A DNA stretch of 64,000 nucleotides from Nymphaea colorata (lineage: Eukaryota > Streptophyta > Magnoliopsida > Nymphaeales > Nymphaeaceae), in NCBI RefSeq assembly GCF_008831285.2, contig NC_045142.1:811001-875000 (forward strand), read 5' to 3'. Position numbers and translations under genes: made by a program. The notes beneath the pieces are model-generated. The model was not told where the DNA came from, did no database searches, and saw only the letters and a list, made by a program, of their open reading frames with translations. Positions 27,383 to 58,500 of the stretch are shown here, piece after piece (position 1 is the stretch's first letter; the number at the start of each line of letters is the position of its first letter).

Positions 27383-28595
27383 TCACAAGAGTGAGGTTGT
27401 TGTGGACGGAAAATCCTGAAAATCTCCCCATCCGTTGCCATTCCAATATGCTAGATTCTGTGACTGATTATCCTCCATTTTAATTGAGGCACCGCTGTTG
27501 CCCAAATGGCTCGGTGGCTTTCCTCTCAGCTGATCAGAAGCGCCTGTGCCAAGATACTGGTGCTCCACTAATCCTTCCCCATCAAACGGTAGCAGAAGCT
27601 GGGGCTCTATGTGGACTAAACCTTCAGGCCTTGAGAATGGTGCCGGAAAATGCTGCTGCATCCTCCAATGCCCAAGGCTACTGTTTTCTGCCTGCTCATT
27701 TGGTGCCATAAAATCTAAACCTAAGGAGTTTCCGGCGCCGGTCGACAATAAATCCCGACTCGGGAAGGCCAATCCAATACCCGTGCCCCCATTGCTATAG
27801 TCCGAGAAGCCATGAATTGTAGAAAGAAAAGGAAGCATAGAAGGTGGGGGAGGATGGTTGTCGATCCCAATGATCTCACCGGTGCAGTTACCGGATGAGA
27901 TGATAGTTGCACCACCAGAACTGGTAGCGCTGCTGGTCTCGATAGCCCGAGACCTGTTGGTATTGCTATTATTGTTGTTGCTGCTGTTCTTGCTCCTCTT
28001 GTTCCTTCGGCAGCCGCCGCCGACGGGGACATTCCGGAGAGCTCCACCCTTAGTCCAGTACCGGCGGCAAGTCTTGCAGAAGTGTCGCGGCTGCGAGAGG
28101 CTGTAATTATTGTAATAACAGAATTTGGTGTTAGTCGATTCGCACCGAGGGCACTTGAGGGACAAATCCGGCGGCTGAACTTTAGCTAGCCGAGCTCGTT
28201 CCGCCATCAGGGTCGGCCTCGTCGAGCTGCCGGAGATTGCGCCACCGACTGTAGTTGGAACCATTTCCGAGTGTGGCCTCTGAAGCATCGGTACGGGAGG
28301 GTTGTCCGCAGCCGAAGATCCACCAGTACCACCAACCAAAACGCTGCCTCCGCCACCACTTCTAGCAGCAGCAGAACCACCACCCCCTCCCGGCTGATCC
28401 TGATGGAATTCGACAACACAACGTTTAGTAAAGAAAAATCTAAAGATCGCTAGGGATATTCAAGCGGCCGAGAGCAAAAAGGTATAAATTTTTCCCCTCT
28501 CTTTAGAGAAAATCTTTCTCAAGGAAAGCAATGGAATTTCTTACCTGCTGCCAGTTGGGTGGATCTAAAAAAACCGGAATTCCAGTAAACACCAT
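27383..28595 (-). CDS. Dof zinc-finger transcription factor, two exons
   Basis: Dof proteins are plant-specific nuclear factors that bind AAAG cores through one C2C2 finger. Exon 1 is 28595-28545 and encodes [17 protein letters not shown], the N-terminus typical of the DOF5.1/DOF2.4 type. After GT-AG splicing in phase 0, exon 2 is 28399-27383, giving 355 residues in total. The finger spans about residues 98-154, with cysteines at about 100, 103, 125 and 128 ([20 protein letters not shown], then [15 protein letters not shown]), and a basic [11 protein letters not shown] tail. Gly/Ser-rich linkers and an Asn/Ser run follow. The C-terminal [12 protein letters not shown] motif and hydrophobic TSLL end also fit this subgroup. 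The intron is 145 bp. CT/GA-rich tracts upstream of 28600 may be in the 5' UTR or promoter. An exact ortholog was not assigned. Confidence 0.96.
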
Positions 28596-43068: not shown

Positions 43069-43378
43069 AGACCCTAATTCTAACTCCTTTACCAAATCTG
43101 TCTGTCTCAGACAAAGGGGAGCGGAGAACGACCGCAAACTACAACCTTTTCAACAATTCCAGCACACATACTCACAGAAGCGGGTTATTTTGCACAATTC
43201 CCAGGGGTGTTTCCGTCCACCAGCGAAAGTCGGCACATTCTGGACGCCGAGTCCGGTCGCGCTCCCCCCGTCCCAAATCTGAACTCCCCCCGTCTCCTCG
43301 CTGTGGATCGCTGGAACTCGACAGAGCGGAAGAAGATCCCGTCGATCGACCTTGGCTCCGAACCGGTGGCTGGAGAGG

Positions 43379-43735
43379 ATGCAGACAGACGATGAGTGGC
43401 TCGCTCCGGACAAGCTCTACCACGTGCTCTTCTGCTTCTTCGTTGCCCTAGCTTCCGCGGAGCTCACGCGCCGCTGCGGCCACTCCTTGCTGCGGAGGCG
43501 GAGCATTTCCATCGGGAGCCTCGTTTCTACGGCAGCCGGAGCCGCGAAGGAGATCGGAGATGAGATGGGCTTCTGGACCTCAGGCGGTGGCTCCATCAAG
43601 GACGCCGTCGCCGACCTCTCCGGCGTCCTGCTCGCGGCGACCATCCTCTGGGCCTTGGCCTTGCCTCCGCCTCCGCCTCCTCCTAAGGGATCGCACGAAG
43701 ATCCCTACCGATTCCACGGGGATTCTGCCGTCTGA
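43379..43735 (+). CDS. DUF2279 / YfiM-like small membrane protein, single exon
   Basis: Single exon of 118 residues starting MQTDDEWLAPDKLYHVLFCF. The motif order matches the DUF2279/YfiM-like family as I know it: DKLYH at the start of a first hydrophobic helix, a middle AAGAAKEIGDEMGF box, and KDAVADLSGVLLAA at the start of a second hydrophobic helix. A poly-proline run (PPPPPPP) and a short polar tail end it. Two membrane helices are likely. The function is unknown; relatives exist in plants and bacteria. The GC content is clearly higher than that of the surrounding spacer. A TTG-initiated extension from 43352 is possible on paper, but the ATG at 43379 is the plant-like start. Confidence 0.8.
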   Translation: MQTDDEWLAPDKLYHVLFCFFVALASAELTRRCGHSLLRRRSISIGSLVSTAAGAAKEIGDEMGFWTSGGGSIKDAVADLSGVLLAATILWALALPPPPPPPKGSHEDPYRFHGDSAV

Positions 43736-51010: not shown

Positions 51011-54000
51011 TCATGCGCTGCTGTTCTGTCCTGGAGGTACTGTTCCCGCCAACCCACCATCGGTAGGAGGGTCATTGGCCCGAGCCATCTCGTCTTGTCC
51101 ATCAGACGCAGAAGAAACACTGGTTTCGGGATCCGGTTCACCCTCAATGTTGGAAGTAGGAACATGTAACTCTTTGGTTGAAACGTCATCTTGATTACCG
51201 GAAGAGGCGTTGTTACCAGGATTTTCATCAGAGAGAGTCGAACCGGAACCAAAGTTGGCATCAGGAGAGGACGTGTGGGACACCTGATCAGCCATCGAGC
51301 TACCACCATTGGGGGAAAGATCACGAAGATCGCCTTTGGACTGGGTTCTGCTGTTGGAAGGGGAACCCTCGGCATTAGTTTCGGCCACGGCACCATGACC
51401 CTCCTTTTCTTCGTGATCAGTACCGCCACAATTGCTAGGATGATTGTCAGAACCAACGCCAGCTCCAGGCGAATGTCCTTTGATTTCCATATTATGAGTA
51501 GCACCACCGTCTAAATGGGTGGCGGCCTCCGTGGTTTCAGCACAAGCGCTACTGTCGTCCGGAGGAGGACGTTTGATATCTTGAGATTGAGAATCAGCAC
51601 CGGCAATGGCGGGAAAGCTTCTGTGCTCACTCTTGGCATGCAACATACGGACCAACTCGTTGTAAGTATTCTGAGCCACAGCGACCGCCCATTCTCTTAA
51701 TTTTGATAAAATTTTAGGGAGGAGAGCAGTATCCACATTGTTGCAAATCGTCAATTTCGTTTCGCTCGTGAATTCAACCTTAGAGTTGGTGGGAGGAAAC
51801 GTAATTCCAATTTTTGAAGTGGCACCGTCATTGAGAAAAAAGCTCTCAACCACCAATTCAGGACTGCCATGATAAACTTCGTCGGCGTCATTTATAGGAT
51901 GAATGATGATCTCACTACTGATATTCGACTCAGTAATATCATCTGATTGAGGCGGGTTGGCCTTAGATATGCAATTAATGCTGCTACAACCACAGTCGCT
52001 GGCTTTAACACTGGGACCAGCACCGCGATTGGGAGAGAGGTCACTGCTCCTCTCCTGCTCTTCTTCCTCACGAATCTTGTTGAGGATGTGACCGCACACA
52101 TTTTGCAACTCGACCATCTTGTCCCTGTACTCTTCCGCAGGTACGAGCTGGTGAGTTGCCAACCATTCGATGCGGTTCTCGATGGCAACCTCAATCCTCT
52201 TTTTATCGGCAGAATCCAGCTTGGTCTCTATCATCTTATCATTGATGGCCTTCCTCGAATCGTAGATATACTTCTCCAATGAGTTTTTTTCCTTTACCCT
52301 GTTCTTGTGCTCCTCCTCCTGAAAGTTGTACACCTCGGCGTCTTGCGCCATCCTTTTTATCTCGTCTCGATTTAGCCGACTTGTGGGGACGGAAACCATA
52401 GTTTTTTGCTTGGTGTTTGTGTTCTGAATTGAGACACTCAAAATACCATTTTCATCAATATAGAAGCGCGCCCTGGCATTCGGAGCAAATTCACATTGTG
52501 AGCGTAATCTTTCGAGAAAGTAGTTGTCCTTATCCTCATAGACATCAAGAAAATGTACGCATTTGTCCCAGGGGAAAATGAAAGGTTTCACGGGCGGGAT
52601 CGCGGTGTTCTTTGGAAACGCAGTTTTCTGATTTGTGCCATTGACAAAGATATTAAAGTCCAAAGCAGTCACATCTTCAAGGGCCAGTTTCGGCATCTCT
52701 TCATTGCCCTCCCTTGTCAACATGGCTGCTTGGAGCGTGGCGCCATAAGCAACAGCCTCGTCGGCATTTATGGCCTTGCAAAGTTCCATACCAAAGTACC
52801 CAATCAACATTTCTTGCACCATCGGAATTCGAGTCGATCCACCAACCAAAAGGACCTCGTCGATGTGCCTTGGGCTCACCTTGCCGTTCCTCAGGCACTT
52901 CGCAACAATCTCTTTGCACTTCATGAGAAGACGATTGTTCAACTTCTCAAACAGGGAGCGAGTGATGGTGGCGGAAAAGTCGATTTCTTCGTACAAGCGG
53001 TCGATCTCGATGGTGGTTTCTTTGGTCACAGTCAGTGCAATTTTCGCTTTCTCACATGCAGCCTTTAGACGCATGACCGCCCTGGAGCTGCAACTTATAT
53101 CCCGCTTATGCTTCTCCTTGAACCTCTCAATAAAATAGTCAACCATGGCATCGTCGAAGTCTTCGCCACCCAGGCAGGTATCTCCTTCCGTGGACATGAC
53201 CTTGAAGGTTCCCTCATCGATATTCAGCAGAGAGACATCTAAAGTGCCACCCCCGAGATCAAAGACTAGGATGTTTTTCTTGCCCTCCCACCCCACATCC
53301 CTGACGAAACCATAGGCAAGGGCAGCGGCACTGGGCTCATTGATAAGGCGCATGACATTCAATCCGGCGATGGCACCAGCGTCCATGGTGGCCTGGCGCT
53401 GAGCCGTGTTGAAGCAGGCAGGAACGCTGATGACAGCATTCCTGGCAGTGGTGCCAAGATAGGCCTCGGCGATGTCGCGCATCTTTGCGAGAACCATCGA
53501 TGAGATCTCCTCTGGTGAAAAGAGCTTATCCTCACCCCTGTAATTGACGCGTATCATATAGCGGCGCTGCACCTGAGGTTCGGAGATCACCTCGAAAGGC
53601 CAGAGCTTCTTAATGTCCCCGACCGGAAATTTGCGGTCAAAAGGGCGCCTACCCATCAAGCGCTTGATATCTACAATGGCAAACACAGCAGCTTCGAAAC
53701 ATGTAAAACCAACCGACACATGGCAACCTCTACAAAGTAGTGCAGGTACAGCAAAATCGTTCATCGTCTCCGAACGCGGAAAAGAACAAGGCCAAAACCA
53801 TAAAAGTCAAAAAAGAACCAACCATTTTTCCGAACGATAATTTTACCTTAAAAAAACGAAGAACACCAAAAAGTAAAAGAGAATCTGCCCCGTCGGAAAG
53901 AAGACGATTCTCCGAACACGGGATCTACTTCCCACTAGGGAGAAAGGGTTGCGGAAGCTGACTAAAATAGCATTAACGGTTAAGGCACCGATGGACTAAA

Positions 54001-54560
54001 AAAGAACTTGGCTGTCATGGCTTTCGAAATTATTAGAAGGCGTTGGAAATCGAACGACGAAAATCGGCACAACAATACAAATATATATCGTAACAAGGTC
54101 AAATTGAGTTTACACAAGTAGGAAACATCTGCTGCTGGTGTTTGGAACTTGATTCGTATTGGACAATTATGTGTAATACCGCGAATCTAAATGTGTGTTT
54201 TGCCTTAATCTAATTTTTTATGTTTTTTCATAAATCTTTGTTTTTTTCTTGCCCCTCTTGAGAGTGAGTGAGAAACATTATTCCTAACAAAATCTAATCA
54301 AAACAGGTAAAGCACAAAAGAGAGGAAAAAAAATGGCAAAACTCACTGAAAATGGTTTTAGTGGAGTTGAAAGCAGCACGGCTCTTTGCTTCTTCGCCAA
54401 TGCGACGGCCTGTATCAGGGAAGGCAACGTAGGAGGGAGTTTTCTTGAGGCCCACTTCATTTGGGAGGATCTCGACCCTGCCAGACCGCCACACTCCCAC
54501 ACAGGAGTACGTCGTCCCCAGATCGATGCCGATTGCAAGGCCCGAATCCTTTTGCGCCAT
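51011..54560 (-). CDS. Divergent HSP70-family protein with long C-terminal extension
   Basis: Exon 1 is 54560-54347 and exon 2 is 53670-51011, joined in phase 1 inside the codon before IKRLMGRR. Cytosolic HSP70 genes have an intron at this same site. The product is 957 residues against about 650 normally. The ATPase domain is well kept: [14 protein letters not shown] near residue 12, [25 protein letters not shown], and [13 protein letters not shown]; the lysine of EEAK and the glutamate of NEP are present. The linker DLLLLDV is replaced by [11 protein letters not shown], and the substrate-binding domain is strongly diverged. A charged lid-like helix region runs to about 611. A roughly 345-residue extension follows and ends [11 protein letters not shown], without EEVD. 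The second exon is one uninterrupted frame of 2660 bases, which argues against decay. It is likely cytosolic or nuclear, since no signal peptide was seen. Confidence 0.9.
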
Positions 54561-55081
54561 TAGCAAATTAATTAGGAACTACTACTGTCACGGAAGGATT
54601 TCAAGCAGCACAAAAATAACAGCGCTATCAACACTGGATGAAGAATTCAGATGATCTTATGGGCAACGAATTATATAGCCCATAGGTTCCATTGTCTATA
54701 TTTACTATTGTCCATGGTCGCCTATCAGTTCGACCATTTTCGGTCAATTAACTTTTTCAAATCCAGTTGTATGGACAGGTGAGAAACAGTTGAGGAGAAA
54801 AAAAAATTAGGGAAAGAGAGAGAGAGTGTTGTGCCCCCCCCCCCCCCCCCCCCCCCCATATTTATGACTTTTTGCATGCCAGAACAACTAGAATGATCCG
54901 ACTCTTTAAATCTGATGGCTAAAAATCCTCAAAACTATGTGCGTTTACATACAAAAGGTCGCAAACTGTTTTGATTTTGAAGCATTACGGCATCGAAGAA
55001 CTTATAAGGCTCCCCGACCGTTTCGATCTGCTATATATGCGTATATTGCTTCTGGTGTTGTGGTAGCTTCCCGGAGGAATA
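54561..55081. promoter_or_regulatory. Shared 521-bp promoter region of the divergent HSP70 pair
   Basis: For the minus gene, GGCTATATAA (54671-54680 read on -) is a TATA candidate about 115 bp before its ATG. For the plus gene, CTATATATGC at 55031-55040 lies about 45 bp before its ATG, and CTTATAAGG at about 55003 is another option. No clean heat-shock element (alternating GAA/TTC with 2-bp spacing) was found by eye; GAAGAATTC at about 54639 has the wrong spacing. A 24-C tract occupies the middle. Confidence 0.6.
54834..54857. repeat. Poly-C tract
   Basis: About 24 consecutive C residues, preceded by a short GA run, between the two HSP70 promoters. Long homopolymeric C runs are rare in plant DNA, and the true length may be uncertain from sequencing. 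Confidence 0.9.
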
Positions 55082-57602
55082 ATGTCCAGCAGAGATGAGC
55101 GTCCGGCTGCCGTCGGAATAGACCTTGGAACGACGTACTCCTGTGTGGGAGTGTGGCAGCGAAATAAAGTTGAAATCATCGCTAACGAACAAGGGAACAG
55201 GACGACTCCCTCCTACGTGTCCTTCACTAAAACAGAGCGCCTTATTGGAGAGGCTGCCAAGGCCAACCTCGTTAGGACCCCCAGCAACACCGTCTTCGGT
55301 GAGTTCCCATGCTTTGATGTGAAATTGTTCCACAGAAGCACGCGCACCTTTGTCACGAAAATTTTAGCCTCCCCAATGTACCAGAATGAGAAGAAACCAG
55401 ATTGTAGAGGTTCGGTGGGAAAACCAGCTGCGGCCTCTCTCTGCCTTTCGTTCATTGGTTTGAACTAGGGAGGTTTCCTCCCGAATAAATTGACTATACA
55501 TCAAGGAAAGGGAAGGGAATCACATTCTCATATCCTGAATTATTACAAGAATCACGCTTATCTTTGTCACGAAAATCTCAGGCTCCTGAATACCTTATTG
55601 ATTTTTTGTGAAGTTCCAGACCCAATTTCAGCCTGTTGTAGTGTCTCGAAACTATTATAAACCTCGGGTTTCTGCATGTATATATGATAGAGTATAACCC
55701 TTTTTGTCTTTCCTTTAATTTCTACTTTGTTGAAAGAAGAAAGACATTTCATCAAGCTCTAACCTGCACTAACTTAAGATATAAGGATAATTTTGTTTCA
55801 AATTTGAAATGGCCGGATTCATGGTGAAGATGATTTGAAGAACATGAAAGAATGGCTTCCTTAAATTTCTATAAATGGAAATGCAAAAGAATGCTCGATT
55901 TAAAAGGTGACGAAATTATTTTGTCTGTTTTTGTTTTGACTACATAATTTGAGGTCCATTGGTTGCAGATGCTAAGCGGCTCATCGGCAGGAAGTTCAGC
56001 GACGAGACCGTGCAAAGCGACATTAGGCTTTGGCCGTTCAAGGTGATCGCAGGGTCAGGTGACAGGCCGGTGATCGTCGTCGAGTACAAGGGTGAGGAGA
56101 AGCGTTTCGTTGCAGAGGAGATCTCGTCAATGGTTCTCAACAAAATGCGTGAGATTGTAGAGGCCTATCTTGGCACCAAGGTTGTTAATGCCGTGGTTAC
56201 GGTCCCTGCCTACTTCAATGACTCTCAGCGTCAGGCCACCAAGGATGCTGGCACCATTGCTGGCCTGAACGTTATGCGCATCATCAACGAGCCCACAGCT
56301 GCCGCCATCGCCTATGGCTTTGATAAGAACGTTGGGAGCAGAGGCAAGAAAAACATTCTCGTTTTCGATCTTGGTGGTGGCACCTTTGATGTATCAATTC
56401 TCACTATGGAAAAGGGAACCTTTGAGGTCAAGGCCACCGGAGGGGACACTCATCTTGGAGGCGAGGACTTCGACAACCGAATGGTGGACTACTTTGTTGA
56501 GCAAATCAAAAGAAAGCACAAGAAGGATATTAGTACCAACCATAAGGCGCTAAGGTCTCTGAGGCTGCACTGTGAGAAAGCCAAGCGTGTTCTCTCTGCC
56601 AACAATGTTTACGAGGCTGTTATAGAGGTCGATGCACTCTATGAAGGAACTGACTTTGCGTCCTCCATATCCCGTGCATGCTTCGAGGATCTCAACATGG
56701 ACCTGTTTAGGAAGTGCCTGATGCCTGTAGAGGACTGCCTGAAAACTGCCAAGATGAACAAGAGTTCCATTGATGAGATCGTCCTGGTTGGTGGGTCGAC
56801 TAGAATACCTAAGGTCCAGCAATTGTTGCAGGAATTCTTTAACAACAAGGAGCTGAGCAGGGACATAAACCCTGACGAGGCTGTTGCCTACGGTGCTGCA
56901 CTCCAAGCGGCCAAGTTGAATGGAGAGGGTACCCGAGAGCTGACAGCCATTACTGTCGTGGACGCCACTCCTCTTTCCCTTGGTATTAATATCAAAGGCG
57001 ATATCATGAGCATTATCGTCCCAAGAGGCACCCCCATTCCAGCCAAGGAAGAGAAGGTATTCACTACGTCTCGTGATGACCAGACAACTGTGACGATCGA
57101 GGTCTATGAGGGTGAGAGAACAAGGACATGCGACAACAACCTGCTCGGAGAATTCGAGCTGTCTGGCATCCCTCCAGCTCCTCGTGGAGTTCCCAAGATC
57201 AATGTGTGCTTTGAAATTGACGTAGATAGCATATTAAATGTCTCCGCAGAGGATGATTGTGCGGGACAAAGCAATGGTATCACCATTACAAATGAGAAGG
57301 GGCGGCTGAGTGAAAGGGAGATCCGAAAGATGGTGCGGGATGCAGAGTGGTACAGGTCAGAGGATGAAAGGTACAGGAAGAAGATCGAAGCAAGAAACAC
57401 ATTGGAGAACTATGCCTATAGGATGAGGAACACCATGAGGAATGAGAGAGCTGACACAAACCTCTCCTATGCAGAAGTAAGAAACATTGAGGACATGATC
57501 CAACATGTCTTATCATGGTTGTTAGATCACGAGGAAGCCGAGGCTAACGAATTTGAAGAAAAGATGAACGAGCTTAGGAGTGTGTGCAGACGAATCACCT
57601 AG
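55082..57602 (+). CDS. HSP70-family chaperone lacking the EEVD tail
   Basis: Exon 1 is 55082-55298 and exon 2 is 55969-57602, joined in phase 1 to make the aspartate of [12 protein letters not shown]. This is the conserved cytosolic HSP70 intron site. The product is 616 residues. ATPase signatures are intact: [42 protein letters not shown], and [14 protein letters not shown]. The substrate-binding domain keeps TPLSLGI, GTPIP and VYEGER. The linker reads [10 protein letters not shown] rather than DLLLLDV, and the usual N-terminal half of the peptide-binding region is shifted ([19 protein letters not shown]). The lid is short and ends [10 protein letters not shown], so the C-terminal region and EEVD, which binds TPR co-chaperones such as HOP and CHIP, are absent. 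It is nearer to canonical HSP70 than its minus-strand neighbour. Confidence 0.94.
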
Positions 57603-58500
57603 CTAGCACGAATGTTAACCGTCAGACCGAAGACTTCATTTATTGTGTTCTTGATTTCAGTGTTGTTTATTTGTCTCCCAGAGTTTCGTTGAGATTGTCA
57701 GACTGTTCGTTTTCCCTTGATTGTAAGCGCATCTTGATCGGTACGTCTGCTTGTGGATGAGGGAGTTGTTTCTTATTTTCCGGCAGTGTGGTGTGTGCTC
57801 CGTTCGTGATTTTTTCCATTGGAAAATTTGTAAGGGTTGCTATTATGTCCTTCTGGGTCGAGGGATCCCTTGCTTATAGTTTCTTCAATTTAATAAACAA
57901 TGCAGAGCAAGTGCTCGGATGGCTTCAATGTACCAATGCAGAGCAAGTGCTCGGATGGCTTCAATGTACCCTGCAATGTTGCTCTTGGAAATACATCGTG
58001 ATTATGACAAGTGATCAAGCCCTCCCTTCTAATTTTGAGCTATAGCTTGAATTGATGCTCCATTACTGGGGGGCAAACGTAAGCGTCACAAAATATTCAA
58101 ACCACGTTACCTCCGTTCTTCGATGCAATGCACATGCTAATTGACTGGACATTGGAAGATGTAGCAAAGAAGCATGCTATGCCTGCAAACCTTGAGAACA
58201 GTGTTGTTTATTTCATGTCTAACTTACAAGCTTCCATGGGAAAACGTGCAGTCAAACATGTCCTCGTCGGTTACTCTTCATTAAGGTGCTTCTTTGTGGT
58301 TTGATCCTTTTTCCAGAAGCTTTACATTTCTATGGATGTCAGATTTCTGAAGATGAGCCATTTCAGCCTGTGCCTGCTCATTATGAGGTGGTGAAACGAG
58401 AATACCATAATCCCAACGACCCCGCATGTTTCTGATATTCCGCTGCAAAGCCTGTCGGGGTAAGCCCGCATCTTTTATTAGAAAAAGAATGGATTATGTA
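57603..58500. other. 3' flank of the plus-strand HSP70
   Basis: Probable 3' UTR, then spacer. It contains an exact 36-bp tandem duplication at 57898-57933 and 57934-57969. No coding exon was recognised. Confidence 0.5.
57898..57969. repeat. Exact 36-bp tandem duplication
   Basis: The unit begins CAATGCAGAGCAAGTGCTCG. Two copies follow head-to-tail with no difference, about 300 bp after the HSP70 stop. The absence of mismatches suggests a recent slip or break repair. Confidence 0.95.

What the first reader, a model, noticed from the sequence alone, without database searches (positions are those of the whole stretch)
51011..52055. HSP70 with a novel C-terminal extension of about 345 residues
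After the normal end of the HSP70 lid the frame stays open for about 345 more codons. The first part (about residues 640-760) alternates hydrophobic and polar residues and includes [13 protein letters not shown] strands ([13 protein letters not shown]), [10 protein letters not shown] and a helix-like [20 protein letters not shown]. It could be a small folded domain. The rest is a Ser/Gly/Asp/Asn/Pro-rich disordered tail with repeated DLSPN words. No HSP70 class I know has this layout. The long intact frame suggests selection.
Basis: partly seen in the sequence, partly recalled or inferred. Interest (0 to 1): 0.85.

Follow-up and report, generated by a model that had tools for sequence, protein, structure and literature searches.

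The report
Water-lily HSP70 with extra C-terminal tail
A water-lily gene in a small cluster of unusual heat-shock chaperone copies codes for an HSP70 that has lost its normal ending and carries a long, mostly disordered-looking tail; the layout is already described from laurels but was said to occur only there.

Summary
Two exons (54560-54347 and 53670-51011, minus strand) code for 957 residues: an HSP70 core (1-612) and an in-frame 345-residue extension (613-957). The extension reads as coding: no stops, strong three-base periodicity, none in the intron or 3' flank. It has no Pfam match, and its first 163 residues have no convincing match among solved structures. The genome is very probably Nymphaea colorata (a contig carrying atpB has exactly its plastome length, 159,842 bp). 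The gene lies in a 30-kb cluster of at least six EEVD-less HSP70 copies. Three of these six carry an extension at the same place: this one, one other intact frame of 784 aa, and one broken copy. The class is in print: 'Type IV' of the T1 truncated cytosolic Hsp70s (PMC10687569), reported there only from Laurales. So this is a member or look-alike outside the stated range, not an unknown layout. Our extension is not significantly similar to the other two; those two show dN/dS about 0.68, against 0.35 in their cores, and neutrality is not excluded. Likeliest role: a disordered interaction or tether tail replacing the EEVD tail. Decay after tandem duplication is a serious rival. No structure could be predicted.

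The parts
54347..54560 (-). exon 1 of the extended HSP70 (residues 1-71 and first base of codon 72)
   Evidence: ATG at 54560, donor TTTTCA|GTGAGT, cytosolic HSP70 N-terminus
53671..54346 (-). intron, GT-AG, at the position equivalent to DAKR (here IF|NIKR)
   Evidence: junction; no coding periodicity; the same intron position is reported for full-length and T1 genes, absent from T2 (PMC10687569)
52049..53670 (-). exon 2, HSP70 core part (to residue 612): NBD with ATPase motifs kept; altered linker; shortened SBD-beta; divergent lid
51014..52048 (-). C-terminal extension, residues 613-957 (345 aa)
   Evidence: no Pfam match; only itself in the genome at E<=1
51620..51922 (-). residues 655-755, the less polar part of the extension (35% FILVWYMC); possible small domain or interaction segment
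   Evidence: fold not tested
51641..51712 (-). residues 725-748 [24 protein letters not shown], helix-like stretch
   Evidence: hydrophobic moment 0.36, 445 of 5000 shuffles as high: weakly amphipathic only
51014..51619 (-). residues 756-957, Ser/Gly/Asp/Asn/Pro-rich acidic tail (net -24, 12% FILVWYMC); ends PGQNSSA, no EEVD
51011..51013 (-). stop codon TGA
54671..54677 (-). TATA-like box TATATAA about 115 bases before the ATG, in the 521-bp space between the two divergent genes
   Evidence: motif match only
55082..57602 (+). divergent neighbour HSP70 (exons 55082-55298 and 55969-57602, 616 aa), ends after the lid, no extension, no EEVD; 47% identical to the core
   Evidence: exon ends read by me

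Best explanation
A member of the T1 group of truncated cytosolic Hsp70s in Nymphaea colorata, with the layout called Type IV (atypical lid plus C-terminal extension, no EEVD). Shown: the gene model, the coding character of the extension, the loss of EEVD, the degenerate substrate-binding region, and a cluster with two further extension-bearing copies. Inferred: the protein can still bind and split ATP (the motifs are kept); having lost EEVD it should not hand clients to HOP/Hsp90 or CHIP; the extension is a mostly disordered, acidic tail with one hydrophobic, helix-prone stretch that takes the place of the EEVD tail and tethers the chaperone to a partner or client, or keeps it soluble, so that it acts as a specialised holdase. 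The partner is unknown. The extension probably arose once in the ancestor of the three extended copies and then diverged fast; this step is not shown by sequence similarity. My confidence is about 0.9 in the identity part, about 0.45 in the tether-tail mechanism.
For: Open, periodic frame. HSP70 E=1.5e-135 for exon 2. DAKR-equivalent intron and cytosolic N-terminus. No EEVD, whereas the three full-length genes whose ends I looked at (two on C6, one on C4) end in KIEEVD. ATPase motifs [24 protein letters not shown] and GGSTRIP kept. Cluster of at least six copies on C5, 862-892 kb, 3 of 6 with an extension starting right after the lid. The two intact extended genes split off together from the six other rows at 100/100 (unrooted tree). 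GC3 falls near the boundary in all three: ours 0.64, 0.55 and 0.65 in residues 72-380, 381-540 and 541-625 to 0.46 and 0.41 in 626-760 and 761-955; second intact gene 0.685 to 0.398; broken copy 0.578 (lid piece) to 0.362. Published class with this layout.
Against: Our extension does not align significantly with those of the other two copies (local 101 and 708 of 1000 shuffles as good; global 50 and 210 of 1000, hhalign P 0.14), so one origin rests on place, tree split and codon-use boundary only; the split joins the two longest branches and could be long-branch attraction. The survey reports Type IV only in Laurales. No Laurales sequence could be compared. No RNA or protein evidence. The second intact gene has lost ATPase residues (FGLGGGALN for FDLGGGTFD), which fits decay as well as a new job.
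Confidence: 0.6

Rival explanations
1. Decay after tandem duplication: the cluster is a set of surplus HSP70 copies drifting under weak constraint, and the extension is a read-through tail with no selected function that happens to be still open.
For: Long branches for the two intact extended genes (0.62, 0.61; other cluster rows 0.31-0.37; full-length genes 0.002-0.09); the broken extended copy and another cluster member whose frame changes; dN/dS of the extension between two paralogues 0.68 by NG86, bootstrap 0.43-1.07, 6.5% of 400 replicates at 1 or more, 0.87-0.94 by YN00; ATPase residues lost in the second intact gene; T1 transcripts reported as scarcely detectable in Arabidopsis and extremely low in three other species (PMC10687569).
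Against: Strong codon periodicity across 345 codons. In a simple simulation of neutral change the frame of our extension stays open in 4 of 5000 runs at 0.45 changes per site (half the divergence from the second intact gene), but in 84 at 0.2 and 448 at 0.1, so this counts only if the extension is old. For the two alignable copies over their own divergence 738 and 542 of 5000 runs stay open, jointly about 0.016; with all change put on one copy 193 of 5000. ATPase motifs of our gene kept, and NBD dN/dS between our gene and the second intact one is 0.23-0.39 by three methods.
Confidence: 0.33
2. The extension is a captured piece of another gene (exon fusion), with residues about 655-755 a small folded domain.
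For: Fall of GC3 near the junction in all three extended genes; residues 655-755 are 35% FILVWYMC against 12% in the tail.
Against: No second copy of the extension in the genome at E<=1, no Pfam match, no match of residues 613-775 to solved structures better than E 0.94. The other two extensions are not significantly similar to it, and the 784-aa gene lacks most of the stretch before the helix. The helix is only weakly amphipathic.
Confidence: 0.15
3. Gene-model artefact: the HSP70 ends near 52050 by a splice, and the rest is another gene or an intron.
For: Donor-like sites lie near 52072 and 51916, and an acceptor-like site ends at 51351.
Against: The same read-through layout in three paralogues, periodicity in the same frame, no stops.
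Confidence: 0.04

Closest known systems
T1-lineage truncated cytosolic Hsp70, Type IV (Groups B and C of Lauraceae), PMC10687569
   Same: Cytosolic HSP70 core, atypical lid, no EEVD, C-terminal extension, DAKR intron, tandem cluster with extension-less members; the paper says N. colorata has one T1 cluster syntenic with the Laurales clusters (presumably this one; not checked).
   Different: Reported only in Laurales and with an extension conserved among species; here it is in Nymphaeales, 161-345 aa, and not recognisably conserved between this gene and the other copies. Homology to the Laurales extensions could not be tested.
T1-lineage Type II (deleted C-terminal domain, atypical lid)
   Same: The divergent neighbour 55082-57602 fits this type.
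   Different: No extension.
Full-length cytosolic HSP70/HSC70 ending in EEVD
   Same: NBD and overall plan; three of the genome's own copies end in KIEEVD.
   Different: SBD-beta shortened, linker altered (PKLALEDV for QDLLLLDV), EEVD tail replaced by 345 residues.
T2-lineage truncated Hsp70 (C-terminal extension with helices; PMC10687569)
   Same: Truncated, with a C-terminal extension.
   Different: T2 is said to lack the intron and the lid and to have a Ser/Thr-rich N-terminal region; this gene has the intron and a recognisable lid.

Membership tests
HSP70 (PF00012) | Pfam profile match and ATPase motifs | tested here: met
   E=1.5e-135 for exon 2; motifs kept (which motifs matter is recalled)
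cytosolic Hsp70T, T1 lineage | lack of terminal EEVD | tested here: met
   ends PGQNSSA; three full-length copies in the genome end in EEVD
cytosolic Hsp70T, T1 lineage | intron at DAKR (absent in T2) | tested here: met
   GT-AG intron at IF|NIKR; rule from PMC10687569
cytosolic Hsp70T, T1 lineage | groups with T1 sequences in a tree across plants | not testable with these tools
   no plant proteins on hand; within the genome it pairs with the second extended cluster gene, 100/100, unrooted
cytosolic Hsp70T, T1 lineage | tandem cluster (a common feature in T1-rich species and N. colorata, not a strict definition) | tested here: met
   at least six copies in 30 kb on C5
T1 Type IV | atypical lid followed by an extended C-terminal domain | tested here: met
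T1 Type IV | extension conserved among species | not testable with these tools
   no Laurales or other Nymphaea sequences available; against the cluster's own copies the similarity is not significant
T1 Type IV | Leu-rich helix in the extension (Group B only) | tested here: inconclusive
   helix-like [23 protein letters not shown] present, moment not exceptional; the paper's alignment was not seen

The most novel reading that the evidence does not exclude
The extension-bearing (Type IV) Hsp70s are not a Laurales invention. They were present in a T1 cluster in the common ancestor of water lilies and the other flowering plants and have been kept since as chaperones with a fast-evolving tail, with at least one partner in the same cluster that looks ATPase-deficient.
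Probability: 0.3. Interest if true: 0.55.

Novelty: new variant of a known kind. Interest (0 to 1): 0.4.

Why it matters
A survey of 192 genomes placed extended T1 Hsp70s in Laurales only; this cluster shows the same layout in an early-branching flowering plant that the survey included. If the extensions are homologous, the class is far older than stated. If not, HSP70 duplicates gained C-terminal tails more than once. Either way the three extended and three tail-less copies side by side make a ready test of what such a tail does.

Tried and rejected
Pfam on exon 2, the whole extension and two pieces of it and on the two paralogous extensions: no match in the extensions; exon 2 also gave a below-cut-off Skp1_POZ match (E 0.0081) that lies in the lid, taken as chance. 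PDB sequences for residues 613-775: best E 0.94, rejected as chance. tblastn of the extension against the window and the next 30 kb: itself, otherwise E 1.6 or worse. Extensions against 13 other fetched HSP70 loci at E 0.01: no hit. Extension against the whole genome: only itself at E<=1. Homology of our extension to the other two: not significant, though the programs line up stretches such as PNGG.S....V..TS. DLSPN repeat: near chance. Heat-shock elements in the 521-bp space between the divergent genes: no GAANNTTC or TTCNNGAA.

Considered and rejected: Lauraceae as source (suggested by the paper) after the plastome length pointed to N. colorata. Pairwise dN/dS between our gene and the second intact one was not used for the extension: dS is 0.75-1.24 in the NBD and up to 2.7 beyond it, near saturation.

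Not obtained: a structure model (structure prediction busy), hence no fold search; a genome-wide search with the broken copy's extension or with the core.

Full report
What is there. On the minus strand, 54560-54347 and 53670-51011 form a two-exon gene with a GT-AG intron; the protein has 957 residues. Exon 2 matches HSP70 at E=1.5e-135, and the two alignments shown to solved cytosolic HSP70s run to residues 604 and 605. I take residues 613-957 (345; 52048-51014) as the extension of the finding. My first model was one base off, corrected.

Is the extension coding? It has no stop in frame, against 14.4 expected; 0 of 3000 dinucleotide shuffles were open, and the other two frames of that strand have 4 and 38 stops. 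Phase composition carries 0.099 bits (shuffle mean 0.004; 0 of 500 reach it), more than in the core (0.067), while the intron (237 of 500 shuffles as high) and the 3' flank (285 of 500) show nothing. Each of three sub-regions passes on its own (0 of 500 each). The first 42 and last 202 residues are 71% and 72% S/G/D/N/P/E/Q/K/T, the tail with net charge -24; residues 655-755 are less polar. DLSPN occurs twice; 203 of 2000 residue shuffles also hold a repeated 5-mer (all). Disorder is inferred from composition; no predictor was run.

Where it is. The held genome has 407,766,735 bases in 783 contigs; the window is contig C5, 811001-875000. Of the 18 contigs whose length I saw (C1-C17 and C783), C1-C14 exceed 12 Mb, C15 is 7.3 Mb, and C783 is 159,842 bp and carries a plastid atpB frame (gene recognised by me from the translation). 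Table 1 of PMC8466565 gives 159,842 bp for the Nymphaea colorata plastome (passages seen), and PMC7015852 gives 409 Mb, 804 scaffolds and 14 pseudo-chromosomes (passages seen). I take the species to be N. colorata, as an inference; the contig counts differ (783 against 804).

The cluster. The genome search for Pfam HSP70 returned 65 matches, a lower bound by its own note. On C5 between 862 and 892 kb they fall into six copies: this gene; the divergent neighbour (616 aa, 285 of 610 residues identical); a broken, 5'-truncated copy at 876.9-878.9 kb; a copy at 882.5-884.5 kb whose frame changes inside exon 2; a copy at 886.5-888.5 kb; and an intact 784-aa gene at 889624-892395. Three of the six run past the lid into an extension: this gene (345 aa), the 784-aa gene (161 aa) and the broken copy (213 aa). 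The other three stop after the lid. None of the six ends in EEVD, while the three full-length genes whose ends I looked at, two on C6 and one on C4, do. Other HSP70 pieces on C5 (509-511 kb and about 1039 kb) hold stops and gave no extension match. In an unrooted tree of eight cores, this gene and the 784-aa gene split off together at 100/100, on the two longest branches (0.62, 0.61). The broken extended copy was left out of the tree; the copy at 882.5 kb entered only with its longest open piece.

The extensions compared. The 784-aa gene and the broken copy share 55-56% identity across their extensions. Ours does not reach significance against either (local: 101 and 708 of 1000 shuffles as good; global: 50 and 210 of 1000; hhalign P 0.14). 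GC at third positions falls near the boundary in all three: ours from 0.64, 0.55 and 0.65 in residues 72-380, 381-540 and 541-625 to 0.46 and 0.41 in 626-760 and 761-955; 0.685 to 0.398 in the 784-aa gene; 0.578 to 0.362 in the broken copy. Between the two alignable extensions NG86 dN/dS is 0.68 (142 codons, bootstrap 0.43-1.07, 6.5% of 400 at 1 or more), and in their core pieces 0.35 (0.27-0.48). YN00 gave 0.87-0.94 for the extension. One of the two is a broken gene, so part of this divergence may be neutral. In simulated neutral change the 161-aa and 213-aa frames stay open in 738 and 542 of 5000 runs (193 of 5000 with all change put on the 161-aa one). Ours stays open in 4 of 5000 at 0.45 changes per site, 84 at 0.2 and 448 at 0.1. 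The first figure for ours holds only if the extension is older than the split from the 784-aa gene, and the simulation uses no real mutation spectrum and no indels.

What the core can still do. ATP-site motifs are kept (IDLGTTYS, the NIKR lysine, [23 protein letters not shown]), the linker is altered, and about a dozen residues of SBD-beta, including part of the usual [10 protein letters not shown], are missing against the C4 full-length copy (which residues matter is recalled knowledge of HSP70). The 784-aa gene reads FGLGGGALN where the others read FDLGGGTFD or FDLGGGTLD, so its ATPase is doubtful.

Known class. PMC10687569 (abstract, Results sections 15, 18, 19 and 20, the first of two parts of the Discussion, and passages elsewhere; figures and supplements not seen) sorts truncated cytosolic Hsp70s of 192 plants and algae into T1 and T2. 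T1 Type IV has an atypical lid followed by an extended C-terminal domain, no EEVD, and was found only in Laurales. The same paper says N. colorata has one T1 cluster syntenic with the Laurales clusters, without giving types for it in the text I saw. It reports T1 transcripts as scarcely detectable in Arabidopsis and extremely low in three other species, and suggests protein interaction for the Leu-rich helix of Group B. In the listed rows of five literature searches (25 of 96, 25 of 30,404, 20 of 49, 15 of 271 and 10 of 21 papers; titles and abstract openings only) I saw no paper on extended HSP70s in Nymphaea, which is weak evidence of absence. Phoebe bournei (Lauraceae) has 45 Hsp70s, 25 of them on chromosome 2 (PMC12189233, passages and Table 1).

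Reading. The layout is real and belongs with, or imitates, T1 Type IV. I think the tail is a disordered interaction tail in place of EEVD. Drift in a surplus cluster is nearly as easy to believe, and only comparison across water lilies and Laurales, plus RNA, can separate the two. No structure model could be obtained.

Noticed in passing
G000:C5:889624-892395 (L010:4624-7395): Intact 784-aa HSP70 paralogue with an extension whose phosphate-binding loop reads FGLGGGALN instead of FDLGGGTFD: probably ATPase-deficient, yet with an open frame.
   Followed up: partly
G000:C5:876883-878915 (L009:1883-3915): Broken, 5'-truncated HSP70 copy in which the last 400 codons, including the 213-codon extension, are still open.
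   Followed up: partly
57898-57969: Perfect 36-base tandem duplication 0.3 kb downstream of the neighbour HSP70.
   Followed up: no
about 54833-54857: Long G homopolymer between the two divergent HSP70 genes; a possible assembly weak point.
   Followed up: no
27386-28459 (-): Dof zinc-finger transcription factor gene exon (PF02701, E=8.8e-34).
   Followed up: no
43283-43732 (+): Open frame with a weak, below-threshold match to DUF2279 (E=0.0039) and a proline run near its end.
   Followed up: no
55334-55377 and 55548-55591: A 44-base direct repeat (80%) inside the intron of the neighbour HSP70.
   Followed up: no
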